A stretch of 64,000 bases of DNA from Cymodocea nodosa (Eukaryota > Streptophyta > Magnoliopsida > Alismatales > Cymodoceaceae), in the NCBI GenBank assembly GCA_036874045.1, contig CM072335.1, positions 5,786,001 through 5,850,000 of the forward strand, in the 5' to 3' direction. Shown piece after piece: positions 7,640 to 35,403 of this stretch (the stretch's first letter is position 1; each line of letters opens with the position of its first letter). A model generated the notes under the pieces. The model saw only the letters and a list, made by a program, of their open reading frames with translations, searched no databases and was not told the DNA's origin. The position numbers were made by a program, and so were the translations under genes.

Positions 7640-7646
7640 AGTTTTA

Positions 7647-7664: not shown

Positions 7665-7735
7665 ATTGAATTGAAATTGAATAGAATAGATATAAGCAAC
7701 TGTTAGAGCTGTTTCGTTTTAATAGCTAGAGTTGT

Positions 7736-10525: not shown

Positions 10526-10845
10526 TGTTTAGAATGAAAAAGTGCATATTATTAACGGTTAAATGATGGTTAATTACATAATATTTAGCTTATCATATGA
10601 GAATTAAGCCATTATATTATAATTGCACTGTTATATGCCTTAGTTGAAGAATCTGCTTAATTTTGGGGAATTAATGTTAATTTAGTACATTTATGAATTG
10701 TCGGTAAATTGCAAGCTGTGAAATTCTTAAGTATCCGAAAATGCATCTGAGCATCGGATAGTTATACCTGTAACTCTCCGAAATGTTATTTTATGTTTAA
10801 ACTGCTACTGACACGTGTCGAGATATGGTATATTTACTTAAGTTA

Positions 10846-10940
10846 TAACTCGTTAAGTTAGCATAACTGTACGCGTTGAGTTGCTATATTGAACACTAAG
10901 GCAACGCGTTAGGTTAGCGTTATAAACTTAAGTTGTTATT
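10846..10940 (+). repeat. LTR block shared with the copia LTRs
   Basis: Begins aactcgttaagttagcataa and runs through gcgttataaacttaagttg to tttgcacgtg. The same block is in C2 LTRs at about 51841-51944 and 63361-63464 and, more diverged, in C1 at about 45836-45940. By eye about four to five differences in roughly 100 bases separate this Ty3 copy from the Ty1 copy at 51841. Confidence 0.85.
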
Positions 10941-11240
10941 TTTGCACGTGTTTTATAGTTAAATCAACGAAGAAAGTTCGTTGAGTTATCTGTAACTCCA
11001 CGGACTATATATTTTCTAATATGCCATTATAGCAGTTGTAGGAACAGATAGTTGGAAGGAAAAACCACATTCGCACGTATCACGCAAGAATTCAATCGCG
11101 TAGGGAGAAAGAAATCATCACCGTTGATCTAAAGGAAGGAAATCCAACCGACCATTCAAGCAGAAGTAGTTACTATTGAAGAAATATAAAAGAAAAGAAG
11201 AAAAAAAGAAGAAGGGTGTGTGATCGATGGACGGCCAGTG

Positions 11241-11250
11241 TATATAAAGG
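11241..11250 (+). promoter_or_regulatory. LTR TATA box (element B 5' LTR)
   Basis: tatataaagg, the best TATA match in this LTR family. Related LTRs have tatatagag (22405) and atatagag (6491) at the same place. It probably drives the full-length transcript; the start site should lie about 30 bases downstream. Confidence 0.6.
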
Positions 11251-12018
11251 AGGAGCACCGAGCTTTCTACAGACAGTATCGGCGATTCTTCGAAGTATCA
11301 CACCAACCATCGTTATCACCACCATAATCACCAATCATCGGAGGTCTGTGAGGATACATGCCTAATGTCGGGTCGATTCCGAGCCAAACACAGTGCCTGA
11401 CAACCACTGTGAGGAGTGATCGCGTCGCAGGAAGGGAAGACATTTTCACCAAGCGCCGACTCATATTTCAGGAGATCGTAAAGCTTTTAGCCTTAGCTTC
11501 GGGTTGATGCCTGTATGCTGAAGAGGAGATCATCTTGCAATTCTGGACTCACGATTCTATAGGGAGAGGAGACAGAATTGTAAGTGGTTCAATTTTCAAT
11601 GGTGTAATCGCGTTGCAAGTAGTGTCTGAAGTATTTACTGTCAAGTGAAATTACTTTACATTTCACCTTTCACCCATCACATAAAAACAAAAATACCAAA
11701 ACCAATTTATCTTTGTTTGTATGTTGTATTTGAGTGTTGTATTGTTGGTGTTGTATCGTGATTAATGTTATGTGTATCAGTTTTATGATTGTTTTATGTT
11801 AGTTTTAATTTTACAGTTTACTGAAATTGGTTCGTACAAAACAACTTAAAGATTTTAATGGTTACTGTTTGAATCATCTGAATGTTAGTATTGCATAATG
11901 ATAAATCCAATGTTAACTAACATTAAAAAGCTTAATTGATGTTATTTACAATCTATGGAATCGCCCAATGGTTGGCCAAATTCCTCTGTAATTAGCAGTA
12001 TTATAAAGAAGAGATAGG

Positions 12019-12111
12019 CTCGTGGAGTTAACTTAAGTCCACGAGAATAGTCCATTGAGTTATCCATAATTGAACGAACTTAGTCCGTTGAGTTAACTAT
12101 AACTCAACGGA
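12019..12111 (+). promoter_or_regulatory. Two strong stem-loops at the LTR 3' end
   Basis: 12019-12045: CTCGTGGA and TCCACGAG are a perfect 8-bp inverted repeat around an 11-base loop. 12084-12111: TCCGTTGAGTTA and TAACTCAACGGA are a perfect 12-bp inverted repeat around a 4-base loop. Both would lie in the U5/leader part of the transcript. The same GTTGAGTTA pairs recur in internal promoter-like regions of these elements. Confidence 0.7.
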
Positions 12112-12390
12112 GTGCTTATTGAATATAAATTTGAATTTTTCACAATCAAACATTTCTTAAATTCGTCAGCAATTCCCTATGGGATCGACCTGTACTTGCA
12201 CACTGATACAATAGACACTGTGCACTTGCAGTTAAAGTACAAATTGGAATTAATATTTAAATTGTATTAAAGGTTGTTTGTTTACTTCTAAAAGAAAGAA
12301 TAGGCGTAAAGATAAATTAACTAAGTAAAAATAAAAGTAACAAATCCAAGTTTTTCTAGTGTAGTGCTGGGAAAACACGAACAAGTTTTA

Positions 12391-12408
12391 TGGTGCCCTT
12401 GCCGGGGA
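12391..12408 (+). other. Primer binding site, tRNA-Asp type (element B)
   Basis: tggtgcccttgccgggga, seven bases after the LTR end; same type and spacing as in element A. Confidence 0.85.
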
Positions 12409-12451
12409 TCGAATTAAATTGAATTGAATTGAATTGAATTGATATAAGCAA

Positions 12452-15249: not shown

Positions 15250-15720
15250 TATGGCCGGAAAATTAAAAAAATATATTGGTTTTACCGAAGCATAGTATCA
15301 GTTAAATCGGAAAAAAATTGTATATTAATTTTCAGAAAAAAATATTTAGGTCTGACCGAAGCATAGTATCGGTTAAACCTGTAAAAAAATAGAAAAACTA
15401 TTCTCTGTAATATTTTTATTATTATATTTGCTTGTACGGGGAGTCCGTTGAGTTATGCTTAACTCAACGAGCTTACTCCGTTGAGTCTTGAGTTAGTCAA
15501 CAAGCTTATTCCGTTGAGTTACCTGTAACACAACAGAGTACTATAGCTAAGACCGTGGATAAAATAGTAATATTTGGTTCGGGAAATGACCCGATTACCC
15601 GCCTAAACTGAGTGCTTATTTAAACTAAAACCTAGGGTTTTGGGGGCATTATCCGACAAATCATTTAGAATCTAGAATAGTAGAAATCAGAGCGATTACG
15701 TGCTGTTGTGTAACTCCACG
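15250..15720 (+). promoter_or_regulatory. Promoter-like region upstream of ORF-T
   Basis: After the pol truncation come two copies of a ccgaagcatagtatc repeat (near 15286 and 15358). Then follows a cluster of GTTGAGTTA motifs including a 10-bp stem CGTTGAGTTA/TAACTCAACG at 15446-15469, then a TATA-like ttatttaaac at 15616-15625, 95 bases before the ATG at 15721. The copia element C2 has the same order in front of its ORF-T homologue (59911, 60043, ATG 60133). I infer an internal promoter for ORF-T. Confidence 0.5.
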
Positions 15721-17949
15721 ATGATGAAGATGACGCCTGAATTCTTGGAAGATGTTGTTGATACATCAGAATTTCTGAAGGAATCAGAAGAGTGGCACAC
15801 GCGGCAGAAGATCAGAAATACGACAAGAGAGAAAAAGCTACAGAAGGTAGAATCATAACTTTTCAAGTTGAGAAGAGATTTTGTAGATATAGATATACGA
15901 ATACCTCAAATGATGGAAACACGAATCAGAGTGGCAACTTAAATTGCAGTAAGTAAAGAAAGACAAATAAGGCCAAGTAATGAAGTTGCCCTAGAATTAA
16001 TCCAGCGTAAGTCCTGACTCTAGTTCAAAAGACAAATCTGTAGACAAGCTAAACGGGTGATCTAGGAGCAAGAAAGGAAAGCAGAGGAAGAGGCAACTGA
16101 AGAACGAGAGGAACCAACTGCTGAAAGACTTGTTCCTGAGGAGCAGCAGTCTAGACCTTCAGTTCCACCATTTAGGCCATTGGCACAAGCAGAAATGATG
16201 GGGCCTTCGATTGAAGAAGAAATAAGAGAATTTGCAGAACTGGTTCAAGTTGGGAAGAACCAAGGAGAATCAGAAGATTTGGCAGTGGCTAAAGCACACA
16301 TGGTGTTTGATGCACTGTACAAAAAGAGGGCTGCAGAAAAGTTGAAAGCCCAATATAAAATCAAAGTGGAACAGCATCATGCAGCTACTGCCATAACTGC
16401 TACCAAATCTGCTGCAAAAGAAGCTGAAGCTAGTCCTTTGAGACCAGTAGTTATAGGAAAAGTTAAATAGGAAGAGCCAGTACCTGTGGCTCGAAGGCCT
16501 GCAGAGCCTACTTTTGTAGATTTAATTTCAGAAGATGAAGAGGAAGAACATGCACAACTAATCAGAAAAAAGAAAGGAAAAGAAAAAGTGCCTGAATTTG
16601 AGAAAATTAAATCTGAAGTACTAATTTTTACAAGGCTTGTGGAGCAGATTTTTATTAACCTGCTATCTGAATCTGAGGAGGAGCAAGAGGAGCAAAGAGA
16701 AGAAGAAAATCAGGCTGAAATTAGTCTACAGCCTGTACAAGAAGAAACAGAAATTAGGGCAGAAACTGAATTGCCCGTGACTCCATCCTAATCTGTTACA
16801 GAATCAGAAAGAACTGTAACAGAATAGATTGGTAGTCAGGAGGAAGAAGAAAGAGTAGAAAATGAAGATGCTGAAAGAAGCCATTTGGACAAAAATAATT
16901 TCACAGATTCCACTGAAGAGCAAGAAACTCTTCAGCAAATTATGGAAAGAATTCAAGATAGAGTGGAGAGTTCTGCTGGCTCACCACCACAGACAGAAGC
17001 AAAAGCAAAAATTCAGGAATCTGAAGAGAATGTCCAAATGCAGCCTATGTTGGAGGAAGAGCAAGAGCAAACCCCTCTAGAGCAACAAAGTCACCTTTCT
17101 GACCTGACTGAAACAACAATTTTGAATGAAGTACATTTTTGTAGTCAGGAAGCTTATATCAAATACCAAGAAATAAGGGGTTACGATATTATTTACAGTA
17201 GACTAGTAAATTGGGATGGAATGCAAGAAATCAAAGATCTATTTGAATTCCAAGGTCTACTGCAATTTTTATCTCAAGATAGAGGGCATGCAGTATATGA
17301 GAATTTAGTGCCCTATTTTTATGCAAATTTAAGAGAAGGAGAAGGAGAATTAATTTCAAATGTGGAGGAAGCTGATGTACAGATAACACCAGAGCTTCTC
17401 CACAACATATTTGGTTTAAAGAATGAAGGAACAAAAATTTTGGAGGATACAACTGCAGTTGAATGGACTGAGCAGTAAATTAAGGATTGTTTAGCTATCA
17501 ATCCTGGTGTGCCATTATTAAACAGATTGAAGCATTTAAATGGTAAAGCACACATGGTAGCTAACATTCTGATTAAGAATGTCTATCAACGATAGAGCCA
17601 TGACATAGAATTAAGTCAATTTGTCAAATGGGCCACGTATGTAGTTGTAAATAAGTTCCAAATAAATTGGTTTGCAGTTTTTATCTCCAAGCTGAAAACA
17701 GTAAAGAAGAAATTATTTTATGGAGATTTGATTCCACACCTGATGGTGGACTGTATCGATTTCACTAAATGGACATCAAAAAGGATAAGATCTAAAACCA
17801 TTTCAGTGAAAGAATACAGAAATTTTGTAGCTGCAGAATTAGCAATACCTTCTAGAGGAATTACAGGAGCTATAGAGAGGATTAATCAATTAGAGCAGCA
17901 ATTAGAAAAAGTCCAGAAGGAAGTAGATGAACTTAGGCATAGAGATTAA
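15721..17949 (+). pseudogene. ORF-T (element B): accessory ORF with a plant-transposon-associated domain
   Basis: One reading frame of 743 codons from the ATG at 15721 to the TAA at 17947, broken by about ten stops (for example 16468, 16789, 17476), almost all explicable as CAA, CAG or CGA to stop. The N-terminal half is charged, rich in E, Q and K, and probably coiled coil. The C-terminal half (about 17100-17830) is a globular domain with DLFEFQGL (17236-17259), GLKNEG (17413-17430), INWF and LFYGD (17713-17727), then a short coiled coil. The same motifs, spacing and length occur in the copia element C2 (60133-62385). The pattern resembles the domain named 'putative plant transposon protein' in plant annotations; this is from memory and untested. 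Function unknown; it occupies the env-like position downstream of pol. Confidence 0.75.
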
Positions 17950-18369
17950 ATTGTATTGTTCGTCTACTTATGTAAAATTGTATGATGTACTTGTATTGTA
18001 ATTGATTCATATTAATGAATGGAAATTTTTCAGATGCAATTTTCATACGTGTTTTGAATGTGAAATGAATGGAAATTATTCAATATTATGTTATTGTGAA
18101 ACTTTATGAATGAATATGTAACAGATTTACAATTTGCTGAATGACAGGATAACTGCTTAAAAAATTTCTACATGTTATAAGGTAAAATGTAAATTCTACA
18201 TAACATAAAATGACCTGCAATTTAAATCTTTATATAATGTTCAGATTTAAATGTATTTTAATCAAAATGAGGCATTAATGACAAAGATTTAACTTTATTA
18301 CAGTTAGCAGAATGACAAAGAAAAAAAAAAAAAAAAAACAGAATAGAAAACTTACGAGAGTGAAACTTA
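17950..18369 (+). other. 3' flank of ORF-T, noncoding
   Basis: AT-rich, with TGTA-rich stretches that could serve as polyadenylation signals and an A-tract near 18320. The same sequence follows ORF-T in element A (26011-26410). No ORF supported. Confidence 0.4.
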
Positions 18370-18850
18370 GAAGTTGCTAAGTGTTAACTCAACGAAGTAA
18401 GTCCGTTGAGTTAGCCGTAACTCCACGAGGTTAGTAATATAATATAAGGTCACTCCGTTGAGTTATCTGTAACTCAACGAAGTTAGTCCGTGGAGTTAGC
18501 AACAGTAACCGACTGTGTTCTGTTGAGTAATCTGTAACTCAATGAGGTTAATTCGTGGATTAAGCAGAACGGTTATTCTTTTAACCACAAACGAAACTTC
18601 GTCGGTTTAGTGGTTACCAAAATTTGAAATTAGTAGTGGTACACGTACCCATTAAAACAGGAACCACGATGCACGTTGCAAGACACGTTCTTGCAACGAA
18701 TTTTATTCACTTTATGAATACGCAGTGTATATATGAAATAGAATGTTATTTACGAGTTACCAGCACTTTTAAGAGAAAGGAGAAAGCGTTGGAGGAATTG
18801 GAAGGAGAAGCAGCTGATTCAACCTTCATCTGACAACAAATATTTATAGA
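18370..18850 (+). promoter_or_regulatory. Internal promoter-like region upstream of the leader exon and F-box ORF
   Basis: Several GTTGAGTTA/TAACTCAAC motifs, including a 10-bp stem CGTTGAGTTA/TAACTCAACG at 18456-18479, are followed by a TATA-like tatatatga at 18728-18736, 115 bases before the ATG at 18851. The purine-rich stretch after it (aagagaaaggagaaag) looks like a 5' leader. The corresponding region of element A (26411-26561 plus 28362-28711) has the same motifs. I infer a promoter separate from the LTR, in the same style as the one before ORF-T. Confidence 0.5.
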
Positions 18851-19924
18851 ATGGAAAGCTTCAGACTGAATCAACAAATGGAATTAATGCAATTACCGTT
18901 GGATGCACAAAGGGAAATACTAAGTAACTTGTCAGTTAAAGATCTATGCAGGATGTGTTGTGTATCAAAGGAAATTAAAGACTGTATTGAAGAAGAATAT
19001 TTTCAGGGACTACAAGCTGCAAAAATGACTAAGATTAGAGATCGATTCATATGGAGGTCATTTAATCGTAGTTCAAATACTCATGAATATCTGGCTATGG
19101 AAGAAACTACTAGAATTCCACCCAATGCATTAGAAGGAATGAGTCATATTATGGGGATATATGAAGGATTAATCATATACAAGACGAGACCAATGTATGC
19201 AAGTTTATCATTACCTGAGATTTTGATAAGAAATCCTATAACAGGAGAAGAATGTAATATAGGAAGACCTAATATATTTGAAGCACCAACTGAAAATTAT
19301 GGGTCAGCTTTAATATGTTCTTATAAAAATTCTGCAATTCCTGAAAAATTATATTATTGGAGACCTACAGGAAATTGGGGTGAAGATTTACACTTAAGTG
19401 TGTATAATTTTCTGAACAAATCTTGGAATGAAAACATTATAATATATCTAGGACAGAAATCATTAATTAACCAAACACATGTCATACTTGATGGTTATAT
19501 TTATTTAGTCACGGAGATATCAATAGCTTATAGATCTGATTTGTACATAGTGAGCATAGACAGTTATGATGATTATACAGAAATTTTACCTGTACCAAAT
19601 GAAATAGCTAAACCACCATCTAAAAAATTTAATAAAATTCAAATAGGAATGTGGTATAATGAAGAAGATGATCCTACTTTATGTCTGATAAGATGGTGGG
19701 ATGAACTGATGAAATTTCAAATATGGATTATGGAAGACATGAATGAATGGAAGTGGGAAGAGGAATATATTGAAATAGATGTAGAAATAGAAACTGCTAC
19801 ATTACCCTGGAACCAAAAAGGATCCCTTTCTACATTACATATCATTAATGGTAATACACTCGTATTTGGAATTTATAATATAATTGCATGTTTACAAATT
19901 AAAAAGGACCAAGAACTGCATTAA
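18851..19924 (+). CDS. Retroelement-borne F-box protein, intact
   Basis: Intact 357-codon ORF inside element B. Residues about 13-50 are an F-box: LPLDAQREILSNLSVKDLCR, then a VSKEIKDCI stretch, with the Leu-Pro start and the V-S-K typical of the motif. The rest resembles an F-box-associated interaction domain: a GLIIY strand followed by ILIRNPITGEE, as in plant F-box proteins where 'W/RNP.T.E' follows the first blade. F-box proteins are substrate adaptors of SCF ubiquitin ligases; the target here is unknown. The first six codons equal the leader exon of element A (28712-28729), and codon 7 (18869) starts exactly where an AG acceptor lies in A. The rest of element B is full of stops, yet this ORF has none. 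The homologue in A (30283-31337) is a pseudogene. Alternative: a host gene captured recently; presence in both A and B argues for an older family component. Confidence 0.8.
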   Translation: MESFRLNQQMELMQLPLDAQREILSNLSVKDLCRMCCVSKEIKDCIEEEYFQGLQAAKMTKIRDRFIWRSFNRSSNTHEYLAMEETTRIPPNALEGMSHIMGIYEGLIIYKTRPMYASLSLPEILIRNPITGEECNIGRPNIFEAPTENYGSALICSYKNSAIPEKLYYWRPTGNWGEDLHLSVYNFLNKSWNENIIIYLGQKSLINQTHVILDGYIYLVTEISIAYRSDLYIVSIDSYDDYTEILPVPNEIAKPPSKKFNKIQIGMWYNEEDDPTLCLIRWWDELMKFQIWIMEDMNEWKWEEEYIEIDVEIETATLPWNQKGSLSTLHIINGNTLVFGIYNIIACLQIKKDQELH

Positions 19925-20454
19925 AACAGAATTAGTAGCAAGAAGAACTATGCCTAAAAAGTTTGCTTGGACTGATACATTTGTTCCGTTTGTTTCTACT
20001 TTTCAATCATGTTCTTAAGCTGTGATTTTGTGTGTTTAGTGTTGTGTCTTCTACATTTATTTTTAGAAAAAAAAAAGAATTTTGAAGTTTTTCATGTTCA
20101 TTTTATAAAAAAAAAAACAAAAAAAACAAAATATCAATCCAGTTTATTGGTATCTATTCTAGAAAACCAACTGATTTGCTTGTGAGCCACCAAAGGCATA
20201 GAAGTCTGGGTTTCACACAAGACACTGATTTATAAATACCTGTTAAATGTTATTTTTTTTTATATTCTATGTTTATCTAGGAATGAAAAGTTTTTCAGAA
20301 TCAAAAATCGGAATATGCAGAAGGAGATACAAATGGAACAAGGTATGTAACCAATTACTTATCTTGAATTTTAAATCAAACAAAACTTTATTCATGCCTG
20401 CTACAATTACTGTACTTATTGTCAAATCTTTTACATTGAGGACAATGCAAAATG
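19925..20454 (+). other. 3' flank of the F-box ORF
   Basis: Noncoding, with two A-rich tracts near 20070 and 20108, a block 'gtgagccaccaaaggca' near 20184, and the strong splice-donor-like aaggtatgtaac at 20339. It ends in the gaggacaatgcaaaatg sequence that, in Athila/Tat elements, normally follows pol. The same order is found in element A at 31338-31865. Confidence 0.5.
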
Positions 20455-20473
20455 TAGGTATGGGGGGGAGGTA
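20455..20473 (+). other. Internal polypurine-tract-like motif (element B)
   Basis: gtaggtatgggggggaggt, similar to the true PPT aggtatgggggaag at 21735. Copy in element A at 31866-31884. It may act as a second plus-strand primer or be a relic of the original 3' end. The segment between the two PPT-like motifs holds the conserved noncoding module. Confidence 0.5.
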
Positions 20474-20639
20474 ATTAAAGTAACAGCCATGTAAGTTTGT
20501 TAATTAAAGGAATTAAAATGGTACTGCAAAGTTTTGAGGAAATTGAAAATTTTTATGAACTTGCTGTAACTATCCTATAATTGAGACTGTAAAATTTTTA
20601 TAAATTGCTTGAATGCTATATTTAGAAGGCTATAGAAGA

Positions 20640-21610
20640 TGCTATAGAATTTATTATTTATGTAAATTTAGATATAGTATCTTATGATTTTTCTGAATTT
20701 CATGAGTTTAACAGTTTCACGATTTTAAAATGAAATCAGAATATTTAATGCTTAATCAGAAAATTATCTGAAATCCTGAAGGAGCTGAGATGTGAATTCT
20801 AGATTAAATGAGAGAGAAAATATTACATGGAACTTGTAGAATGATTTTTGTGTAGATCTTATTAAACTACAGATAAAGTATGAACTTATTGTTATGGATT
20901 CATATCTTTAGTAAATGATAGAAGCAGGATTATATGAGATTGGTGTTTTACTGCATCTGTATTAATGAAATACGTGCATATATAGTATGTGATTAATGCT
21001 TTGTTTTGTGTGTGCATTTATTTTTAGAAAAAAAAAAAAAAACCTTGAGAGTTTATTGACTTATTTGATCACGAGCATTTTGTACTTGAGCAGATAGGTA
21101 TGTAAGGATTGTTGACCTAAAAAAGGACTCTGAAAATCTGGCAACCTAAGATCTTGATCAGATCTGGGATTGTTGACTGAAAACTCGTTACATGGGTACA
21201 TGAGAAAGCTCTTGCATGATTCAAGCTTGTCAAATTAACTTTTAAAGTACAAAAAAAAAAAAACATATACTGTTCTGAAAAGATACAAGTGTTTTGTGAA
21301 ATACAGATATCTTATGAATCGAGTATATTTTCTGTTATCTAGAATTGCTGAAATATGAATCTGGAATTGACTTTTGAAGTTGTTTAATGGAAATACAATT
21401 CTTTATTCTACTTGTCTTAATCAGATTGAATTGGATTGTACTTTAATTTGTATGTTGTTGAAATTTCTTCTGGAAAAACTTATTGGAAAATTCAGGATTA
21501 TTGATGATAAAAAGAAGAACAAACGATAATATAATTAACACCAATATGAAGATGATATACTTTGTATGTAATTTACATATATTCTAAATATCTTTGCAGG
21601 TTGATTACTG
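20640..21610 (+). other. Conserved noncoding module shared with element A and copia C2 (copy B)
   Basis: No ORF. Core at 21044-21247 (204 bases) matches 32476-32668 in element A and 59047-59251 in the Ty1 element C2; by eye about nine of ten bases agree with C2 and the core lengths are equal. Weaker colinear similarity extends on both sides to about 20640 and 21610. Contains a strong splice-donor-like aggtatgtaagg at 21097 and the palindromic agatcttgatcagatct near 21150, and ends near an acceptor-like atctttgcag (21590-21599). Could be a structured RNA element, an intron or a transport or packaging signal. Function unknown. Confidence 0.7.
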
Positions 21611-21734
21611 AAACATACAAAATATATGTTTATGCTAAACAAAAGAAAACAAATAAAAGGGGGAGAATTAATTCTAGCACTTTTTCAAAGACCAATTAAT
21701 TAGATCTTAGTTTGCTAAGGGACTAGCAAAATTT

Positions 21735-21748
21735 AGGTATGGGGGAAG
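21735..21748 (+). other. Polypurine tract (element B)
   Basis: aggtatgggggaag directly in front of the 3' LTR start tgttt. The identical motif precedes the 3' LTR of element A at 33165-33178. Confidence 0.85.
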
Positions 21749-23517
21749 TGTTTAGAATGAAAAAGTGCATATTATTAACGGTTAAATGATGGTTAATTGC
21801 ATAATATTTAGCTTATCATATGAGAATTAAGCCATTATGTTATAATTGCACTGTTATATGCTTTAATTGAAGAATCTGCTTAATTTAGGGGAATTAATGT
21901 TAATTTAGTACATTTATGAACTGTCGGTAAAATTGCAAGCTGTGAAATTCTTGAGTATCTGAAAATGCATCTAAGCATCGGATAGTTATACCTATAACTC
22001 TCCGAAATGTTATTTTATGTTTAAACTACTGCTGACATGTGTCGAGAGCTGGTAGATTTACTTAAGCTATAACTCGTTAAGTTAGCATAACGATACGCGT
22101 TGAGTTACATGAATATACACTAAGGTAACGCGTTAGGTTAGCGGCTTATTTCTTTATTGCATGTATTTTATAGTTATTTTCCAAAATGCCACTATAGCGG
22201 TTGCAGGAACAGACAGTTGGAAGGAAAAACCATGTTTGCACGTATCACGTAGGAATTCAATCGCACAGGGAGAAAGAAATCATCGCCGTTGATCTGAAGG
22301 AAGGAAATCCAACCGATCATTCAAGCAGAAGTAGTTACTACTGAAGAAATATAAAAGAAAAGAAGAAAAAAAGAAGAAAGTGTGTGATCGATGGACGGCC
22401 AGTGTATATAGAGGAGGAGCACCGAGCTTTCTGCAGATAGTATCGGCGATTCTCCGAAGTATCACACCAACCATCGTATCACCACCATAATCACCAATCA
22501 TCGAAGGTCTGTGAGGATACTTGCCTGATGTCGGGTCGATTCCGAGCCAAACACAGTGCCTGACAACCACTGTGATGAGTGATCGTGTCGCGGGAAGGGA
22601 AGACATTTTCACCAAGCGCCGACTCATATTTCAGGAGATCGTAAAGCTTTTAGCCTTGGCTTCGGGTTGATGCTTGTATGTTGAAGAGGAGATCATCTTG
22701 CAATTCTGGACTCACGATTCTATAGGGAGAGGAGACAGAATTGTAAGTGGTTCAATTTTCAGTGGTGTAATCGCGTTGCAAGTAGTGTCGGAAGTATTTA
22801 CTGTCAAGTGGAATTACTTTACATTTCACCTTTCGCCCATCACATAAAAACAAAAATACTAAAAACAATTTATCTTTGTTTGTATGTTGTATTTGAGTGT
22901 TGTATTGTTGGTGTTGTATCGTGATTAATGTTATCTGTATCAGTTTTATGATTGTTTTATGTTAGTTTTAATTTTACAGTTTACTAAAATTGGTTCGTAC
23001 AAAACAACTTAAAGATTTTAATGGTTGCTGTTTGAATCATCTGAATGTTAGTATTGCATAATGATAAATCCAATGTTAACTAGTATTAAAAAGTTTAATT
23101 GATGTTATTTACAATCTGTGGAATCGCCCAATGGTTGGCCGAATTCCTTTGTAATTAGCAGTATTATAAAGAAGAGACAGGCTCGTGGAGTTAACTTAAG
23201 TCCACGAGGATAGTCCATTGAGTTATCCATAATTCAACGAACTTAGTGCTTATTGAATATAAATTTGAATTGTTCACAATCAAACATTTCTTAAATTCGT
23301 CAGCAATTCCCTATGGGATCGACCTATACTTGCACACTGATACAATAGACACTGTGCACTTGCAATTAAAGTATAAATTGGAATTAATATCTAAATTGTA
23401 TTAAAGGTTATTTGTTTACTTCTAAAAGAAAGAATAGACATAAAGATAAATTAACTAAGTAAAAATAGAAGTAACAAATCCAAGTTTTTCTAGTGTAGTG
23501 CTGGGAAAACGTGAACA
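21749..23517 (+). repeat. Element B 3' LTR (short type)
   Basis: 1769 bp, tgttt...gaaca. It lacks the second 3' stem-loop and the gttaaatcaacgaag/gttgagttatctg segment present in the 5' LTR, and its U3 block reads ttacatgaatatacactaag where the 5' LTR reads ttgctatattgaacactaag. The minus solo LTR at 26562 is closer to this LTR in U3 than the 5' LTR is. Confidence 0.85.
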
Positions 23518-23904
23518 CTAGACCTTTAACTAATCTATTAAAAGATGTTCCATTTAACTTTGATAAAAATTGCAAAGAAGCATTTTTCAAACTTAAGACT
23601 AGCTTAATTTCAACTCCTACAATTCAAGCACCTGATTGGAGCCATTCATTTGAATTAATGTGCGATGCATCTGATTTTATTGTAGGAGCTATGTTAGGAC
23701 AGAAAATAGAAAAATCTCCTAGAGTGATTCATTATGCAAGCAAAACCTTAAATGATGCTCAAGTTAATTACACAACTACTGAAAAAGAATTATTAGCTGT
23801 TGTGTTTGCCTTAGAAAAGTTTAGATCATATCTAATTGGAGCTAAAGTAATAGTATGCACAGATCATTCAGCTCTAAAACATCTAATAAAGAAAAAAGAA
23901 ATAC
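23518..23904 (+). pseudogene. Element A pol, second part: RT connection and RNase H
   Basis: Continues the element A frame after element B: RPLTNLL, then a Ty3-type RNase H with CDASDF, a TTEKELLAVVFALEKFR helix and TDHSALKHL. The frame is open for 129 codons, then enters ORF-T sequence and stops at 23919. The rest of RNase H and the whole integrase are absent. The junction near 23900-23935 has a gaaatacagata direct repeat (again near 23986), suggesting a microhomology deletion. Confidence 0.8.
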
Positions 23905-26010
23905 AGATAACTTTTATCTAATAGAGAGAAAGAGCTACAAAAGGTAGAATCAGAACTCTTTAACTTGAGGAAAGTTTTGGTTGAGTTAGAAATACAGATA
24001 CCATAGATAATGGAGACACGAATTAGAGTGGCAATTGAAATTGCAGTAAGTAAAGAAAGAAAGATCCGGCCAAACAATGAAGTAGCCCTAGAGTTAATTT
24101 AACGTAAAACCAGATTGTGGTTTAAGAAACGCATTGCTGGTCATGCAAGATGGGCAATATAGGAGCAGCAACGAGTAAGAGAACAGGAGGAACCAACTGC
24201 TGAAAGATCTATTCCTAAGGAACAGCAGTCAGGACCTTTAGTTCGGCTAACAAAGCCATTGCCTCGAGTTGCATTTGCTTAGTCGAGAATTGAAGAAGAA
24301 ATGAAAGAATTTGCTAGCTTGGTCAAGACAGCAAGAGACCAAGGTGATACTTAAGAGATAGCTACGGCTAAGGCACATATTTTATATGATGCCATTAAGA
24401 AGAAAAGGGTCGAAGAAAGGATAAGGGCGCAATACAAAATAAAAGTTGAACAGTATCAGGCAGCAACTAAATCAAGTGCTGTAGGAGAGGCTAGTCCTTC
24501 GAGACCAGTAGTGATGAAAAGAGTTAAACAGGAAGAGCTAGTACCTGTGGCTCGAAAGCCTGTAGAGCCTACTTTTGAAGATTTAATTTCAGAAGAAGAA
24601 TAGGAAGAAAAGGCACAACTAATCAGAAAAAAGAAAGGAAAAGAAAAAGTGCCTGAATATAAAGAAATTAAATCTGAAGTACCAATTTTTACAAGGCCTG
24701 TGGAGCAAATATTTATAAACCTGCTATCCGATTCTGAGGAGGAGCTGCAGTAGCAGGTGCAAAGAAAAGAAAAAAATTAGGCTGAAATTAGTCTACAGCT
24801 TGTACAAGAAGAAAGAACAGAAATTAGGGTAGAAATTAAATTGCCCGTGATTCCATCCCAATCTGTTATAGAATCAGAAAGAACAGTAACAGAACAGATT
24901 GGTAGTCAGGAGGAAGAAGAAATAGCAGAAAATGAAGAGGCTGAAAGAAGCCATTTGGACAAAAATAATTTCATAGATTCCATTGAAGAGCAAGAAACTC
25001 TTCAGCAATTTATGGAGAGAATTCAAGACAAAGTGGAGAGTTCTGCTGGCTCACCACCACAAACAGAAACAGAAATTCAGGAATCTGTAGAAAATGTTCA
25101 AATGCGACCTATAGAAGAGGAAGAGCAAGAGCAAACCCCTCTGGAACAACCAAGTCACCTTCCTGACCCGACTGAAACAATAATTTTGAATGAAGTACAT
25201 TTTTGTAGTTAGGAAGCTTATACCAAATACAAAGAAATAAGGGGTTACGACATTATTTATAGTAGACCAGTAAATTGGGATGGAATGCAAGAAATTAAAG
25301 ATTTATTTGAATTCCAAGGTCTACTATAATTCATTTCTTAAGAAAGAGGGCATGCAGTTTATGAGAATTTAGTGCCTTGTTTTTATGCAAATTTAAGAGG
25401 AGAAGGAAGATTAATTTCCAACGTGGAGGAAGCTGATGTACAGATAACACTAGAGCTTCTCCACAACATTTTTGGTTTAAAGAATGAAGGTATAAAAATT
25501 TTGGAAGTTACAACTGCAATCGAGTGGACAGAACAGCAAATTAAAGATTGTTTAGCTATCAATCCTAGTGTGCCTTTATTAAACAGATTGAAGCATTTAA
25601 ATGATAAAACACACATGGTAGCTAACATTTTGATTAAAAATGTCTACCAATGACAGTGCCATGACATAGAATTAAGTCAATTTGTCAAATGGGCCACATA
25701 TGCAGTTGTAAACAAGATTCAAATAAATTGGTCTGCAGTTTTTATCTCCAAGCTGAAAACAATGAAGAAGAAATTATTTTATGGAGATTTGATTCCACTG
25801 CTGATGGTGGACTGTATTGATTTCACAAAATGGACATAAAAAAGGATCAAATCTAGGACCATTTCTGTGAAAGAATATAGAAATTTTGTAGCTGCAGAAC
25901 TAGCTGTACCTTCTGGAGGAATTACGAGAGTAGTAGAAAGGATTAATCAATTAGAGCTTCAATTAGAAAAACTCCAGAAGGAAGTAGATGAACTTAAGCA
26001 TAGAGATTAA
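23905..26010 (+). pseudogene. ORF-T (element A), 5'-truncated and mutated
   Basis: Colinear with ORF-T of element B from about codon 40 to its TAA at 26008. The charged, coiled-coil-like first half and the domain with DLFEFQGL (about 25302), GLKNEG, LFYGD and the terminal coiled coil are all recognisable. More than ten stops (for example 24100, 24601, 24751, 25210) and small indels. Stops do not coincide with most of those in B, so the two copies decayed independently. Confidence 0.75.
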
Positions 26011-26561: not shown

Positions 26562-28356
26562 TGTTCGCGTTTTCCCAGCACTACACTAGAAAAACTTGGA
26601 TTTGTTACTTCTATTTTTACTTAGTTAATTTATCTTTATGCCTATTCTTTCTTTTAGAAGTAGACAAACAACCTTTAATACAATTTAGATATTAATTTCA
26701 ATTTGTACTTTAACTGCAAGTGCACAGTGTCTATTGTATCATTGTGCAAGTACAAGTCGACCCCACAGGGAATTGCTAACAAATTTAAGAAATGTTTGAT
26801 TGAGAACAATTCAAATTTATATTCAATAAGCACTCCGTTGAGTTACAGTTAACTCAACGGACTAAGTTCGTTGAGTTATGGATAACTCAACGGACTATCC
26901 TCGTGGACTTAAGTTAACTCCATGAGCCTGTCTCTTTTTTATAATACTGCTAATTACAGAGGAATTCGGCCAACCATTGGGCGATTCCACAAATTGTAAA
27001 TAACATCAATTAAGCTTTTTAATGCTAATTAACATTGGATTTATCATTATGCAATACTAACATTCAGATGATTCAAATAGTAACCATTAAAATCTTTAAG
27101 TTGTTTTGTACGAACCAATTTCAGTAAACTATAAAATTAAAACTAACATAAAACAATCATAAAACTGATACAGATAACATTAATCACGATACAACACCAA
27201 CAATACAACACTCAAATACAACATACAAACAAAGATAAATTGTTTTTGGTATTTTTGTTTTTATGTGATGGGCGAAAGGTGAAATGTAAAGTAATTTCAC
27301 TTGACAGTAAATACTTCCGACACTACTTGCAACGCGATTACACCACTGAAAATTGAACCACTTACAATTCTATCTCCTCTCCCTATAAAATCACAAGTCC
27401 AGAATTGCAAAATGATCTCCTCTTCAGCATACAGGCATCAACTCGAAGCCAAGGCTAAAAGCTTTACGATCTCTTGAAATATGAGTCAGCGCTTGGTGAA
27501 ATTGTCTTCCCTTCCCGCGACGCGATCACTCCTCACAGTGGTTGTCAGACACTGTGTTTGGCTCGGAATCGACCCAACATCAGGCAAGTATCCTCACAGA
27601 CCTCCGATGATTGGTGATTATGGTGGTGATACAATGGTTGGTGTGATACTTCGGAGAATCGCCGATACTGTCTGGAGAAAGCTCGGTGCTCCTCCTTTGT
27701 ATACACTAGCCGTCCATCGATCACACTTTCTTCTTTTTTTCTTCTTTTCTTTTATATTTCTTCAGTAGTAACTGCTTCTGCTTGAATGATCGGTTGGATT
27801 TCCTTCCTTCAAATCAACGGCAATGATTTCTTTCTCCCTTCACGATTGAATTCCTGCGTGATACGTGCAAACATGGTTTTTCCTTCCAACTGTCTGTTCC
27901 TCCAACCGCTACAGTGGCATTTTGGAAAATAACTATAAAATACATGCAATAAAAAAATAAGCTGCTAACCTAACGCATTACCTTAGTGTATATTCATGTA
28001 ACTCAACGCGTATAGTTATGCTAACTTAACGAGTTATAACTTAAGTAAATCTACCAGCTCTCGACACGTGTCAGTAGTAGTTTAAACATAAAATAACATT
28101 TCAAAGAGTTACAGGTATAACTATCCGATGCTCAGATGCATTTTTAGATACTTAAAAATTTCACAGCCTGCAATTTACCGATAGTTCATAAATGTACTAA
28201 ATTAACATTAATTCCCCAAAATTAAGCAGATTCTTCAATTAAAGCATATAATAGTGCAATTATAACATAATGGCTTAATTCGCATATGATAAGCTAAATA
28301 TTATGCAATTAACCATCATTTAACCGTTAATAATATGCACTTTTTCATTCTAAACA
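26562..28356 (-). mobile_element. Solo Athila-like LTR, minus strand
   Basis: 1795 bp; reverse complement begins tgtttagaatg and ends cgcgaaca. Flanks gttag (26557-26561) and attag (28357-28361) match at 4 of 5 bases, and the sequence on either side is contiguous in element B (18480-18500). It is therefore a later insertion into element A, reduced to one LTR by LTR-LTR recombination. Short type, close to the element B 3' LTR in U3 but with both 3' hairpins. Confidence 0.85.
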
Positions 28357-28361
28357 ATTAG

Positions 28362-28711
28362 CAACAGTAACCGACTATGTTCAATTGAGTTATCTATAAC
28401 TCAATGAGGTTAGTTTGTGGATTAAGTAGAATGGTTATTCTTTTAACCACAAACGAAACTTCGTTAGTTTAGCGGTTACCAAAATTTGAAATTAGTAGTG
28501 GTACACGTACCCATAAAAACAAGAACCACGATGCACGTTGCAAGACACATTCTTGCAATGAGATTTATTCACTTTATGGATGTGCAGTATATATATAAAA
28601 CAGAATGTTATTTTCGAGTTACCAGCACTTTTAAAAGAAAGGAGAATGCATTAGAGGAACTGGAAGGAGAAGCAGCTAATTAAACTTCATCCGACAACAA
28701 ATATTTATTGA
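28362..28711 (+). promoter_or_regulatory. Second part of the internal promoter region (element A)
   Basis: Matches 18496-18850 of element B, with a TATA-like tatatataaa near 28588 and the same purine-rich leader up to the ATG at 28712. Confidence 0.5.
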
Positions 28712-28830
28712 ATGGAAAGCTTCAGACTGGTATGTAATTAATCTTCTACTATTTATTTATGAGCACATGGACCTGTTCTCTAAGCACTAAATGATTAGTA
28801 AGAACACCTACCTAGGAATTTTCATTGCAG
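28712..28830 (+). other. Six-codon leader exon and short intron (element A)
   Basis: ATG at 28712 and six codons to 28729 (MESFRL, identical in element B). A canonical donor follows (ctg|gtatgt at 28730), and an acceptor ttcattgcag ends at 28830. This 101-nt intron would join the leader in phase 0 to the gag frame starting AGG at 28831. A second acceptor, gtgttatatag ending at 30282, would join the leader in phase 0 to the F-box frame at 30283. Element B has exactly the second join. Confidence 0.75.
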
Positions 28831-30102
28831 AGGAGTATTGAAAAATTTTCTGAACTGAACTTTAACGAAATTCTTTGGGGTGTAGCTAACCTTTCTTTAA
28901 AAGAGAACGCAGAAATGGCTGCTCCAGTAGAAAAACCATTAAGAGAGATTCTATATCCTGAATTAGTTGATGAACCTTCTTGTATTCGATTGCCAAACTT
29001 TGCGGGAGATAGGTTTGAACTGAAATCTAATTATATTAGTTAATTGCTACATTTTCATGGATTAGAAAGAGAAGATGTCTATTATTTCCTTAGAGAATTT
29101 AATGAAATTTGTTAAATGATGAAAATGTCGAACATGAGTATAGATGCTATTAAACTTAGATATATCTCTTTTTCTTTAAAAGACATAGCTAAGAGATGGT
29201 TATATACTCTATCACCTGATTCAATTTCTACATGGACTGAATTTTACTCTATTTTTCTGGAAAAATATTATCCAACACATCAAACGATTAAAAAGAAGAA
29301 AGAAATACTAATGTGTGGCCAAAAGTAGGATGAATCATTCTGAAAATATTTTGAAAGATTTAAAGATTTACTGACTCAATGTCCACATCATGCAATGAGT
29401 AAAGCACAATTAATAGGTATAATTTATGAAGGCATAGATGTTTCAACAAAATCTTTATTAGAATCTACTTGTCAAAATGGATTTTTAAAGTTATGTAGTG
29501 AAGAAGCATGGGCATATTTAGAAAACTTTGCAAAAAGAACTGCACAGTGGGAAAATTCAGCTGAAGCTATTGCAGATAAAAAAATATTGCTAAGAGGAAT
29601 GCATGAAATAGATTCAAGTACTATGCTCGAGGTGAAATTAAATGAATTAACAAAGAAAATAGAAGAGTTATCATTAAATCAAAGGCTAGCAGAAAAGAAT
29701 GCAAACATAAATGATTTAGATATTATTTATGCTAGAAACCAAAGAGATAACTTGGGAAATTCTTATAATCCTAATTGGAGAAATCACCCAAATTTATCTT
29801 GGAGAAACAACAATTTCTAGGGAGGAGAAAATATAAATGAGAAGAACATAAGTTATGAAGCATTAATTGAACAAGGATCTAGAATAGAGAAATTAGAAAA
29901 GATAATCCAACAATTAAACAATCGTCTAGATTTTGTATTTGGAAATGCTGCAATTCAAAATCAGAATAGAAATATACCACTTAGATAGAAAGAACCAATG
30001 GAAGGTAGACCTACTAGAGGATTGCCAATACAAGCAATACCTAATCCTGTCAATAGAACTGTTAATGAAATTAATACCTCTTCTAGGAGGATAGCTGAAT
30101 GA
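28831..30102 (+). pseudogene. Athila-type gag located 3' of pol (element A)
   Basis: Frame of 423 codons plus the TGA at 30100. It shows the Retrotrans_gag pattern of Athila elements: RLPNFAGDRFELKSNYI, an LHFHGL segment, a short 'SFSLKDIAKRWLYTL' helix, FLEKYYP, a KDLLTQCPHH segment, and the closing YNPNWRNHPNLSW. A coiled coil follows. It has no zinc knuckle; that lies at the start of pol (7808). Six in-frame stops (29041, 29113, 29326, 29341, 29818, 29986), each one base from CAA, CAG or TGG-like codons. No ATG of its own fits the frame at the 5' end, consistent with use of the leader-exon ATG. Element B lacks this whole region. Usual Athila order puts gag before pol, so the position is abnormal. 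Confidence 0.8.
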
Positions 30103-30282
30103 AGCAGCATATCTGAAGCAACTATCTATATGTATATATGTTTTTATTTTTAGTTAATAGTATCGTAGAGTTAGTCCTTAACTCAATGAACTTAGTCCGT
30201 TGAGTTATTCCTTAACTCCACGAGTGTGTGTAGTAGTTATGTTAATTTTTGTCTCTGCTAAATTTTTGTTTGTGTTATATAG
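30103..30282 (+). other. Gag-F-box spacer with 3' splice site
   Basis: T-rich, with two GTTGAGTTA-like motifs (near 30169 and 30198), and ends in a pyrimidine-rich stretch and gtgttatatag. The following base starts the F-box frame. Absent from element B. Confidence 0.6.
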
Positions 30283-31337
30283 AATCGACAAATGGAATTG
30301 ATGCAATTACCGTTGGATGCACTAAGGGAAGTACTGAGTAATCTATCAGCTAAAGATCTCTACAGGCTATGTTGTGTATCAAAAGAAATTAAAGATTGTA
30401 TTGAAGAAAAATATTTTCAGGGACTACAAGCTGCAAAAATGACTAAGATTAGAGATGGATTTATATGGAGGTGATTTAATCGTAGTTCAAATACCCATGA
30501 ATATTTGGCTATGGAAGAAACTACTAGAATTCCACCCAATACATTAGAAGGAATAAATCATATTATGGGGATAGATGAAAGATTAATCATATATAGGACG
30601 AGACCAAGGTATGCAAGTTTATTATTACCTGATATTTTGATAAGAAATCCTATAACAGGAGAAGAATGAAATATAGGAAGACCTAATAGATTTGAAGTAC
30701 CAATTGTAAATTGTGGATCGGCTTTGTTTTTTTCTGATAAAAATTCTACAATTCTTGAAAAATTATATTATTGGAGACCTACAGGAAATTGGAGTGAAGA
30801 TTTACGCTTAAGTGTGTATAACTTTCTGAATAGATCTTGGAATGAAAATATTATGATATATCTGGGACGGAAATCAATAATTAACCAAACACATGTCATA
30901 CTTGATGGATATATATATTTAGTCACAAATATATCAATAGCATTTGGATCTGATTTATACATAGTGAGCATAGATAGTTATGATGAAAATATAGAAATTT
31001 TACTTATACCGAGAGAAATAGCTAAACCACCATCTAAAGAATTTAATAAAATTCAAATAGGAATGTGGTATAATGATGAGGATGATCTTACTTTATGTTT
31101 GATAAGATGGTGAGATGAATTGATAAAATTTCAAATATGGATTATGAAAGACATAAATGAATGGAAGTGGGAAGAGAAATATATTGAAATAGATGTAGAA
31201 ATAGAAACTGCTACATTACCCTAGAATCAAAAAACATCCCTTTCTGCATTTCATATCATTAATGGTAATACACTTGTATTTGGAATTTATAATATATTAC
31301 ACGTTTACAAATTAACAAGGAACAAGAACTGCATTAA
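30283..31337 (+). pseudogene. F-box protein pseudogene (element A)
   Basis: Homologue of the intact F-box ORF at 18869-19924. Starts at a splice-acceptor boundary with AAT CGA CAA ATG. F-box (LPLDALREVLSNLSAKDLYR) and the F-box-associated part are recognisable throughout. Broken by stops at about 30472, 30667, 31111 and 31222 (two are TGG codons in B) and a one-base deletion near 31297. It shows that the F-box gene is part of the element family, not a unique capture by B. Confidence 0.85.
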
Positions 31338-33164: not shown

Positions 33165-33178
33165 AGGTATGGGGGAAG
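33165..33178 (+). other. Polypurine tract (element A)
   Basis: aggtatgggggaag directly before the 3' LTR. Confidence 0.85.
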
Positions 33179-35403
33179 TGTTTAGAATGAAAAAGTGCAT
33201 ATTATTAATGGTTAAATGATGGTTAATTGCATAATATTTAGCTTATCATATGAGAATTAAGCCATTATGTTATAATTGCACTGTTATATGCTTTAATTAG
33301 AATTACTGCTTAATTTTGGGGAATTAATTTTAGTTTAGTACATTTCTGAACTGTCGGTAAGTTGCAGACTATGAAATTCCTATGTATTTGAATTTTCTAA
33401 TATTTCAGACAGTTATGTCTAACATACTGACCATATTTCGGACAGTTATGTTTAACAAACCAAACATGTCGGATAGTTATGTTTAAATTGCCGAACAGTT
33501 ATGTTTTGAAAGAATATTTTATTATTTCCTAAAGTACATGTGTCGAAACCATAATACATGACTTAAGTGAACTTTTGGTGAGTTATCTATAACTATCTGA
33601 AATTGCAGTTGGGCCTCGGACAGTTATATGTGTAACTCTCCGAAATCTCTTTTTATTTATAAAATAGCTGAGTACATGTGTCATGTTCTGGTAAAGTGAC
33701 TTAAGTGGATTTTAGGTGAGTTATCTGTAACTATCCGAAATGCATCTGAGCATCGGATAGTTAGCTCTGTAACTCTTTAAAATGTTATTTTATGATTAAA
33801 CTGCAGCTGACACGTGTCGAGATCTAGTAGATTTACTTAAGTTATATATCGGTGAGTTATCTGTAACTATCCGAAATGCATCTAGGCATTGGATAGTTAA
33901 GTTTATAACTATCTGAAATGTATCTAGGCATCAGATAGTTAAGTTTATAAGTATTTGAAATGCACCTAAGCATCAGATAGTTAAATTTATGCACGTGTTT
34001 TATAGTTAAATCAACGAAGAAAGTCCGTTGAGTTATTTCTAACTCCACAGACTATTTATTTTCTAATATGCCACTATAGCGGTTGCAAAAATAGGACAGT
34101 TGGAAGAAAAACCACGACTGCACGTATCACGCAGAGAGAAGAAAGCATCACCGTTGATATGAATGAAGGAAATCCAACCGATCATTCAAGCAGAAGCAGT
34201 TACTACTGAAGAAATATAAAAGAAAAGAAGAAAAAGAAGTAAAGGGTGTGATTGATGGACGACCAGTGTATACAGAGGAGGAGCACCAATCTTTTTGTAG
34301 ACAGTATCGGCGATTCTCTGAAGTACCACACCAACCATCGTTACCACCACCACAATCACCGACCATCGAAGGTCTGTGATGATACTTTCTTGATGTCGAG
34401 TCGATTCCGAGCCAAACACAGTGCCTAACAACCACTGTGAGGAGTGATCGCGTCGCGGGAAGGGAAGCCATTTTCACCAAGCACCAACTCATATTTCAGG
34501 AGATTGTAAAGCTTTTAGCCTTGGCTTCGGGTTGATACCTGTATGCTGAAGAGGAGATCATCTTGCAATTCTGGACTCGGGATTCTATAGGGAGAGGAGA
34601 CATAATTGTAAGTGGTTTAATTTTCAATGGTGTAATTGCATTGCAAGTAGTGTCGAAAGTATTTACTGCCAAATGAGATTACTTTACATTTCACCTTTCG
34701 CTCATTTCCATGTTCATATTAAAACAAAAATACAAAAACAATTTATCTATGTTTGTATGTTGTACTTGAGTGTTGTATCCTGATTAATGTTATCTTTGTC
34801 AGTGTTGTGATTGTTTTATGTTGTTTTAGTTTTACAGTTTACTGAAATTGGTTCGTTCAAAAGACTTAAAGATTTTAATGGTTACTATTTGAATTATCTG
34901 AATGTTGTATTGCTTAATGATAAATCCAATGTTAACTAGCATTAAAGAGCTTAATTGATGTTATTTACAATCTATGGAATCGCCCAATAGTTGGCTGAAT
35001 TCCTTTGTAAATAGCAGTATTAAAAAGAAAAGACAAGCTCGTGGAGTTTACTTAAGTCCACGAGGTTAGTCTGTTGAGTTAGCCATAACTCAACGAACTT
35101 TGTCCGTTGAGTTAGCTGTAATTCAACGGAGGGCTTATTGAATATATAAATTTGATTGTTAACAAACGAATAGTTCTCAAATTTTTCAGCAATTCCCTAT
35201 GGGATTGACTTGTACTTGCACACTGATACAATAGACATTATGCACTTGCAATTAAAGTACAAATTGGAATTAATATCTAAATTGTATTAAAGGTTGTTTG
35301 TTTACTTTTAAAAGAAAGAATAGTCATAAAGATAAATTAACTAAATAAAAACAGAAGTAACAAATCCAAGTTTTTCTAGTGTAGTACTAGGAAAACACAA
35401 ACA
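33179..35403 (+). repeat. Element A 3' LTR (long type)
   Basis: 2225 bp, tgttt...aaaca, followed by the TSD. Keeps the three ~137-bp U3 repeats (near 33576, 33714 and 33850) and the long-type cggacagttatgtttaac stretch. Partner of 5400-7639. Confidence 0.85.

What the first reader, a model, noticed from the sequence alone, without database searches (positions are those of the whole stretch)
28712..30283. A six-codon leader exon that can be spliced in frame to either gag or an F-box ORF
Seen: in element A the ATG exon (28712-28729) ends at a canonical gtatgt donor. One acceptor (ttcattgcag, ending 28830) joins it in phase 0 to gag; a second (gtgttatatag, ending 30282) joins it in phase 0 to the F-box frame. 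Gag has no fitting ATG of its own at its 5' end. Known: BARE elements make Gag from a spliced RNA, and Ogre elements have introns. Inference: this element makes two alternative proteins, Gag and an F-box protein, from one internal promoter by choice of acceptor. I know of no described element with this arrangement.
Basis: partly seen in the sequence, partly recalled or inferred. Interest (0 to 1): 0.92.

Follow-up and report, generated by a model that had tools for sequence, protein, structure and literature searches.

The report
Capsid gene inside an F-box intron
A very abundant plant jumping element keeps its capsid gene at the unusual end of the element, inside an intron of an F-box gene, and many copies in the same genome that lack exactly that intron indicate that its RNA really is spliced there.

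Summary
Two details differ: gag has its own in-frame ATG (28915; 42 of 44 copies) and so has the F-box frame (30292). The window's copy is a decayed Ty3/gypsy element with a relative (B) nested in it.

The F-box splice is well supported. B lacks exactly 28730-30282. The host genome has 2366 places with leader plus donor, 201 with the exact leader|F-box join and 1 with the exact leader|gag join; reversed-pattern controls 0. On a tree of 46 copies the intronless state changes 16 times. A ~15% diverged sister subfamily has 36 more leader|F-box joins.

The leader ATG is not conserved: 0 of 20 sister copies have it. What is kept is a 5' exon spliced to gag or F-box.

In the copies examined, pol comes first and capsid last, inside an F-box gene's intron. 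I found nothing like it in 7 answered literature searches. Gag splicing and an internal promoter are inferred.

The parts
5395..7639 (+). 5' LTR of element A
   Evidence: 92.3% to 33181-35403; K 0.0755 between the two LTRs
7640..10520 (+). element A: ORF1 remnant, protease, RT; no capsid domain found
   Evidence: 93% to element B 12384-15246; RVT_1
10525..23517 (+). element B, same family, nested in A's pol; gag-less, intron absent
   Evidence: LTR pair K 0.0504
12443..13291 (+). element B ORF1 (CX2CX4HX4C knuckle, read by eye), directly after the LTR and primer site; no capsid domain found
   Evidence: LTR to ORF1 stretch unbroken in 39 of the 40 best-scoring genome copies
16066..17475 (+). 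additional ORF of element B (two open stretches; weak match to Transposase_32 PF20167, below cut-off)
   Evidence: equivalent in A at about 24163-25893
18851..19921 (+). element B: leader fused directly to the F-box ORF, open 357 codons
   Evidence: F-box PF00646 E 1e-9; junction after 18868
23518..23921 (+). element A RNase H remnant after nested B
   Evidence: RT_RNaseH
26562..28357 (-). solo LTR inserted upstream of the leader
   Evidence: its flanks are contiguous in B (26561/28358 match 18499/18496)
28590..28598 (+). TATA-like motif, candidate internal promoter
   Evidence: TATATAT in 44 of 44 sequences examined
28712..28729 (+). leader exon MESFRL
   Evidence: ATG in 44 of 44 main sequences, most of them picked by a pattern that includes it; no ATG in the 100 nt up to the donor in 20 of 20 sister copies
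28730..28830 (+). intron to acceptor 1 (gag); 101 nt, about 116 nt in the sister subfamily
   Evidence: GT..AG; absent exactly in L089; sister length
28730..30282 (+). intron to acceptor 2 (F-box); 1553 nt, contains the whole gag gene
   Evidence: absent exactly in B and at 201 + 36 genome places by pattern; 30 of the 201 inspected
28831..28914 (+). 28-codon extension between acceptor 1 and gag ATG
   Evidence: open in 19 of 20 sister copies; no codon-level selection
28915..30102 (+). gag (capsid) gene, decayed, without a zinc knuckle
   Evidence: Retrotrans_gag E 3e-4, below cut-off, for its longest open piece; 29 hits, 27 with Retrotrans_gag, best E 4e-68
30283..31326 (+). F-box ORF of element A, decayed; own ATG at 30292
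   Evidence: 81% to B F-box; dN/dS 0.43 against B
33170..33178 (+). polypurine tract
   Evidence: TGGGGGAAG before the 3' LTR, by eye
33179..35403 (+). 3' LTR of element A

Best explanation
This is a high-copy Ty3/gypsy element, Athila/Tat-like by recalled traits, whose capsid (gag) gene has left its usual place and sits at the 3' end, inside an intron of an F-box gene. SHOWN BY DNA RECORDS: the RNA is spliced from the donor at 28729 to the F-box acceptor at 30282, and spliced RNA has been copied back into DNA repeatedly in the main subfamily; a sister subfamily has the same joins. In the copies examined the 5' side carries knuckle, protease, RT, RNase H and integrase, and no capsid was detected there. 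INFERRED: a 3' transcript, from an internal promoter or a further splice, uses one donor and two acceptors. Acceptor 1 removes a short intron that holds upstream AUGs, so that Gag is made from the leader ATG (main subfamily) or from its own ATG (sister). Acceptor 2 removes gag and gives the F-box protein. Capsid is thus made from its own mRNA, apart from Pol. GUESS: the F-box protein joins a host SCF ubiquitin ligase and removes a host protein, perhaps one of the silencing machinery.
For: Element B lacks exactly 28730-30282. Genome counts at up to 3 mismatches, reversed-pattern controls 0: leader plus donor 2366, leader|F-box 201, leader|gag 1, sister leader|F-box 36. Tree of 46 copies: 16 state changes, at least 10 forced by well supported branches, no clustering against shuffles. 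Of 20 copies taken by F-box similarity, 16 carry leader and gag: donor intact 16/16, acceptor 1 AG 14/16, acceptor 2 AG 14/16. Sister: donor GT 19/20, acceptor 1 AG 17/20. Upstream ATGs: none in the sister 5' exon (20/20), mean 4.05 in its intron 1. LTR to ORF1 stretch unbroken in 39 of the 40 best-scoring copies; RNase H and integrase present in both elements sampled. Relative P0002 has capsid, knuckle (by eye) and protease-like part in one protein. F-box dN/dS 0.43 although A is decayed.
Against: No RNA data were available. Leader|gag splicing rests on one copy; a sister leader|gag pattern found only that same copy. The upstream-AUG idea is weak: single-copy shuffles give P about 0.05 (sister intron enriched), 0.20 (main intron), 0.15 and 0.12 (exon depletion); 8 of 20 sister copies have an ATG in the extension before the gag ATG, and 31 of 44 main sequences have one in the 5' exon before the leader. 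The extension shows no codon selection (dN/dS 0.70 in frame against 0.64 and 0.83 in shifted frames), and a stop at its codon 16 occurs in 8 of 44. Gag codon positions among copies look neutral. None of 16 gag-bearing copies had an open gag. Recombination between spliced and unspliced templates could inflate the number of state changes. The internal promoter is a motif only. The 40 copies are the best-scoring of 3804 candidates, so members with a 5' capsid gene are not excluded.
Confidence: 0.67

Rival explanations
1. Only the F-box splice is functional. The short acceptor-1 intron is incidental, Gag is translated from its own ATG on unspliced RNA, and the single leader|gag copy is a chance deletion.
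For: 201 against 1 processed copies; no codon selection on the extension; gag ATG kept in 42/44; deletions do occur here (one of 125 nt in 44 sequences, which are mostly picked for an intact leader and donor, so the true rate may be higher).
Against: L089 is exact at both GT and AG; from the one 125-nt deletion in 44 I estimate a few in a thousand, perhaps 2% with end bias, for a chance exact deletion somewhere among about 2400 copies (rough, mine). Acceptor 1 is kept in a ~15% diverged sister despite a different intron length. Unspliced RNA would place about 3-4 upstream AUGs of the intron before gag.
Confidence: 0.25
2. The intronless form is ancestral, and a gag-bearing segment was inserted once into an existing F-box gene; the mixed tree reflects recombination between the two forms.
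For: A well supported intronless clade (L010, L013, L014, L018, L020) shows that intronless copies amplify; Athila elements are reported to recombine (PMC2410132, start of abstract in the listing only).
Against: An insert with exact GT..AG ends, absent cleanly from 201 + 36 places, behaves as an intron in any case; L039 (unspliced) groups with spliced L029 and L033 by sequence on both sides of the intron.
Confidence: 0.12
3. The gag in the F-box intron belongs to a separate element that inserted there, and this family is simply a gag-less parasite.
For: Gag-less parasitic LTR elements are known (BARE2, PMC3735527, passages); the gag pieces have no match in ORF1; a 63-nt stretch between gag and acceptor 2 (30164-30226) resembles a repeat motif of the LTRs.
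Against: Gag lies at the same place in two subfamilies (leader plus donor at 2366 places; 16 of 20 and 20 of 20 fetched copies have it after the leader); no LTR pair of its own was seen around it in the window.
Confidence: 0.09

Closest known systems
BARE1 (Ty1/copia, barley), PMC3735527 (passages read)
   Same: a spliced RNA pool dedicated to Gag; a 104-nt intron; a gag-less subfamily (BARE2) that depends on BARE1
   Different: gag is in its normal place and the splice cuts off pol rather than choosing between two genes; no F-box in the passages read; the authors could not amplify DNA copies of spliced RNA, whereas copies with exact joins are abundant here
EVD (Ty1/copia, Arabidopsis), PMC8892269 (passages read)
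   Same: splicing creates a separate, better translated Gag mRNA
   Different: splicing plus early polyadenylation within one gag-pol unit; no second gene chosen
Ogre-Tat-Athila Ty3/gypsy lineages, PMC6317226 (passages read)
   Same: extra ORFs and long regions 3' of pol; pol order; gag type (recalled)
   Different: capsid gene not found at the 5' end but 3' of pol; F-box gene; 'F-box' does not occur in that paper's main text
Bagy2, env-like message by splicing (mentioned in PMC7264820 and PMC3735527, passages)
   Same: spliced message for a 3' gene of a plant gypsy element
   Different: one env-like product; here the donor lies 3' of pol and the choice is between gag and an F-box gene
Grande / Retand extra 3' genes (PMC11963269 passages; Grande only as a figure-legend name)
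   Same: long region between pol and 3' LTR carrying accessory genes; [quoted passage not shown]
   Different: antisense accessory ORFs; 'F-box' and 'intron' have no occurrence in that text

Membership tests
LTR retrotransposon | paired LTRs, polypurine tract, target-site duplication | tested here: met
   A: LTRs 5395-7639 and 33179-35403, tract at 33170-33178; flanking ACTTG read by eye on both sides from the edges printed
Ty3/gypsy | order protease-RT-RNase H-integrase | tested here: met
   A/B protease-RT; L110 and L111 RNase H then integrase core
Athila/Tat lineage | position in an RT tree | not tested
   no tree made; gag resemblance and a primer site resembling tRNA-Asp are recalled, so membership is not claimed
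Athila/Tat lineage | capsid gene directly after the 5' LTR (general LTR-element order) | tested here: not met
   no capsid found after the LTR in A and B; LTR to ORF1 stretch of 561 nt unbroken in 39 of the 40 best-scoring copies
F-box protein | F-box domain above curated cut-off | tested here: met
   PF00646 38.3 bits against cut-off 20.5
F-box protein | binding to SKP1 / SCF assembly | not testable with these tools
   needs experiment
spliceosomal intron | GT..AG ends and exact absence from processed copies | tested here: met
   acceptor 2; acceptor 1: one copy only
alternatively spliced gene | both isoforms seen in RNA | not testable with these tools
   no RNA data; genomic copies with each join exist (201 and 1)

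The most novel reading that the evidence does not exclude
A retrotransposon family that has split its gag: the nucleic-acid-binding knuckle stays with Pol at the 5' end, while capsid became an intronic gene of an F-box gene at the 3' end. One donor with two acceptors then works as a switch between making particles (Gag) and acting on the host (F-box). Use of the F-box acceptor on genomic RNA repeatedly creates gag-less satellites that spread on the parent's particles.
Probability: 0.42. Interest if true: 0.88.

Novelty: new variant of a known kind. Interest (0 to 1): 0.77.

Why it matters
How LTR elements make much more capsid than enzyme is a standing question; the solutions I know keep gag first. 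A family that put capsid last, on its own spliced message shared with an F-box gene, would be a different solution that succeeded (over two thousand recognisable places). It also offers genomic records of splicing: processed copies let RNA splicing be read from DNA alone. And it suggests a simple route, splicing of genomic RNA, by which gag-less satellite elements could be born again and again.

Tried and rejected
Other plants: the F-box protein had no hit at E 0.001 or better among 624 candidates; viral contigs gave no relatives of F-box or of the longest gag piece; ORF1 had one hit, 97% identical over 36% of the query, from a 762-nt record. So the age of the arrangement outside this genome is unknown. 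A PDB sequence search gave two weak, unrelated hits for the F-box protein (E 0.41 and 0.77). Codon selection on the extension was tested and not found. The first tree used unspliced copies chosen by similarity to A's F-box and is biased; the tree replaced it. In one search, 15 of the 61 loci tried were left out because their matching upstream stretch was under 900 nt. In one search, L049 and L050 (segmental duplicates) and L042 (the window itself, entered once as W) were dropped before counting. In one search the row for the protease region was read in a wrong frame (14 stops shared by both copies) and is not used. In one search the acceptor was placed one base off by my motif; searches replaced it. 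The script failed at its last line, after printing. L041, with its primer site only about 1 kb from the leader, was checked as a possible further splice product; its junction shows a short shared sequence and looks like a deletion. The share of spliced copies in the sister subfamily could not be given: the count of unspliced sister copies did not complete.

Full report
WHAT THE WINDOW HOLDS. The region is a nest of plant LTR elements. Element A runs from a 5' LTR near 5395-7639 to a 3' LTR at 33179-35403; blast gives 92.3% between them and my alignment K 0.0755. Element B (10525-23517; LTR pair K 0.0504) is a member of the same family inserted in A's pol, and a minus-strand solo LTR (26562-28357) sits just upstream of the leader. 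At an assumed 1.3e-8 changes per site and year (a recalled rate) A and B are about 2.9 and 1.9 million years old. The host genome, unnamed, has 374.6 Mb in 28 contigs.

CHECK OF THE OBSERVATION. Coordinates, splice motifs and phases are right. Two statements need correction. Gag has an in-frame ATG at 28915 that lines up with the first residue of related proteins, and the F-box frame has an ATG at 30292, nine bases past its acceptor. This copy is decayed: 6 stops in the gag frame, 4 in the F-box frame.

THE F-BOX SPLICE IS RECORDED IN THE GENOME. Element B matches A up to 28729 and resumes at 30283, with leader and F-box in one open frame of 357 codons. Genome-wide, with up to 3 mismatches and reversed-pattern controls of 0, there are 2366 places with leader plus donor, 201 with leader joined exactly to the F-box and 1 with leader joined exactly to gag. 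All 30 of the 201 places that were fetched (the first listed, by mismatch and contig order) run from leader straight into F-box with no gag between. So about 8% of recognisable copies are in the F-box-spliced state; patterns miss decayed copies and differ a little in length, so this is a rough share.

MANY TIMES, NOT ONCE. A tree of the stretch upstream of the leader from 46 copies (23 spliced to the F-box, 22 unspliced, 1 spliced to gag; 15 of 61 loci tried were left out for short matches) needs 16 changes of the spliced state, at least 10 of them forced by well supported branches, and shows no clustering against shuffled labels (mean 15.6). Recombination may account for part of this, but unspliced L039 sits among spliced copies by sequence on both sides of the intron. 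One intronless clade (L010, L013, L014, L018, L020) seems to have multiplied after losing gag. In 29 of 31 processed copies over 1000 nt of element sequence lie upstream of the leader, which suggests that the spliced RNA was longer than a transcript from the proposed internal promoter.

THE GAG SPLICE. The one leader|gag copy, L089, joins the leader to the base after 28830, keeps the rest of the element downstream unspliced, and has a separate internal deletion in gag. Only one deletion of 20 nt or more was seen between 28700 and 28960 in 44 sequences (most were picked for an intact leader and donor), so a chance deletion exact at both ends is unlikely though not excluded (my rough figure: a few in a thousand to about 2%). 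Support from conservation: of 20 copies chosen by F-box similarity (the best of 39 listed besides the window), 16 carry leader and gag, 2 are intronless and 2 truncated; of the 16, donor is intact in 16 and the AG of acceptors 1 and 2 in 14 each. Against: a sister leader|gag pattern found only L089.

A SISTER SUBFAMILY CHANGES THE READING. A second subfamily, about 85% identical to A here, keeps the donor (GT in 19/20) and acceptor 1 (AG in 17/20) with an intron near 116 nt, and has 36 exact leader|F-box joins by pattern, none of them fetched. But its leader has no start codon: no ATG in the 100 nt up to the donor in 20/20 copies. There Gag and F-box must start at their own ATGs. The general design is therefore a 5' exon spliced to either gene; the shared coding leader is a feature of the main subfamily. 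The 28-codon extension before the gag ATG is open in 19/20 sister copies, yet its dN/dS (0.70) does not differ from shifted frames (0.64, 0.83), so translation of it is not shown; 8 of 44 main sequences have a stop at its codon 16.

A POSSIBLE USE OF INTRON 1 is to remove upstream AUGs: mean 4.05 in the sister intron and 2.91 in the main one, none in the sister 5' exon. This is weak: single-copy shuffles give P about 0.05 and 0.20 for the introns and 0.12-0.41 for exon depletion; 8 of 20 sister copies have an ATG in the extension, and 31 of 44 main sequences have one in the 5' exon before the leader.

GENE ORDER. In B the frame that follows the LTR directly contains a zinc knuckle (by eye) and leads into protease and RT, without a capsid domain; A matches it at 93%. 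The first 561 nt from LTR end into ORF1 are unbroken in 39 of the 40 best-scoring genome copies (of 3804 candidates); the fortieth has a short insert. Three places pair an LTR-primer site with a leader or leader|F-box join about 8 kb downstream on the same strand (coordinates); in the two of these sampled (L110, L111) RNase H and integrase fill the middle, with some frame breaks. The relative P0002 carries capsid, knuckle and a protease-like part in one protein. So capsid appears to have moved to the 3' side, leaving a knuckle behind. Members with a capsid gene at the 5' end are not excluded. The capsid gene, read with X at stops, matches 29 proteins, 27 of them with Retrotrans_gag; those with an organism name are from plants.

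THE F-BOX PROTEIN. It has a clear F-box. Between A and B its dN/dS is 0.43, although A is decayed; RT gives 0.59 and the additional ORF 0.25 in the same comparison. No relatives were found in the protein collection. Several viruses use F-box or F-box-like proteins to disturb host silencing (listing and abstract starts only); a similar role here is a guess.

LITERATURE. I ran 7 answered full-text searches (one search returned no paper). I read passages of BARE (PMC3735527), EVD (PMC8892269), the extra-ORF review (PMC7264820), Retand (PMC11963269) and the plant LTR-element survey (PMC6317226). 'F-box' has no occurrence in the main text of the last three. In these I found no element with capsid 3' of pol, nor one with gag inside an F-box intron; most subscription papers were not covered.

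VERDICT. F-box splicing: shown by DNA records. Gene order: shown for the copies examined. Gag splicing: likely. Internal promoter: a TATA-like motif in 44 of 44 sequences, inferred. Function of the F-box: guess.

Noticed in passing
51361-63880, with 58683-59499 and 60121-62196: A Ty1/copia element (copia-type gag and integrase) carries an additional ORF about 30% identical to that of the gypsy elements A and B (E 4e-41), and a stretch 72% identical to A 32090-32930: possible exchange between copia and gypsy families.
   Followed up: partly
10846-10950 against 51841-51945 and 63360-63464: A 105-bp LTR stretch is 96% identical between gypsy element B's 5' LTR and the copia LTRs.
   Followed up: no
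L030:2454-3032: A second F-box copy, 84% identical, with quite different sequence upstream and no gag match in the locus: perhaps another family carrying the F-box gene.
   Followed up: no
28831-28914, codon 16: A TGG to TAG change at the same codon of the gag extension in 8 of 44 sequences, perhaps a subfamily mark.
   Followed up: no
30164-30226: A 63-nt stretch between gag and acceptor 2 is 84% like a repeat motif of the LTRs, in inverted orientation to 26831-26892.
   Followed up: no
35619-36840 and 40631-42051: Leucine-rich-repeat gene pieces, minus strand, about 89-90% alike; the second copy has LRR domains.
   Followed up: no
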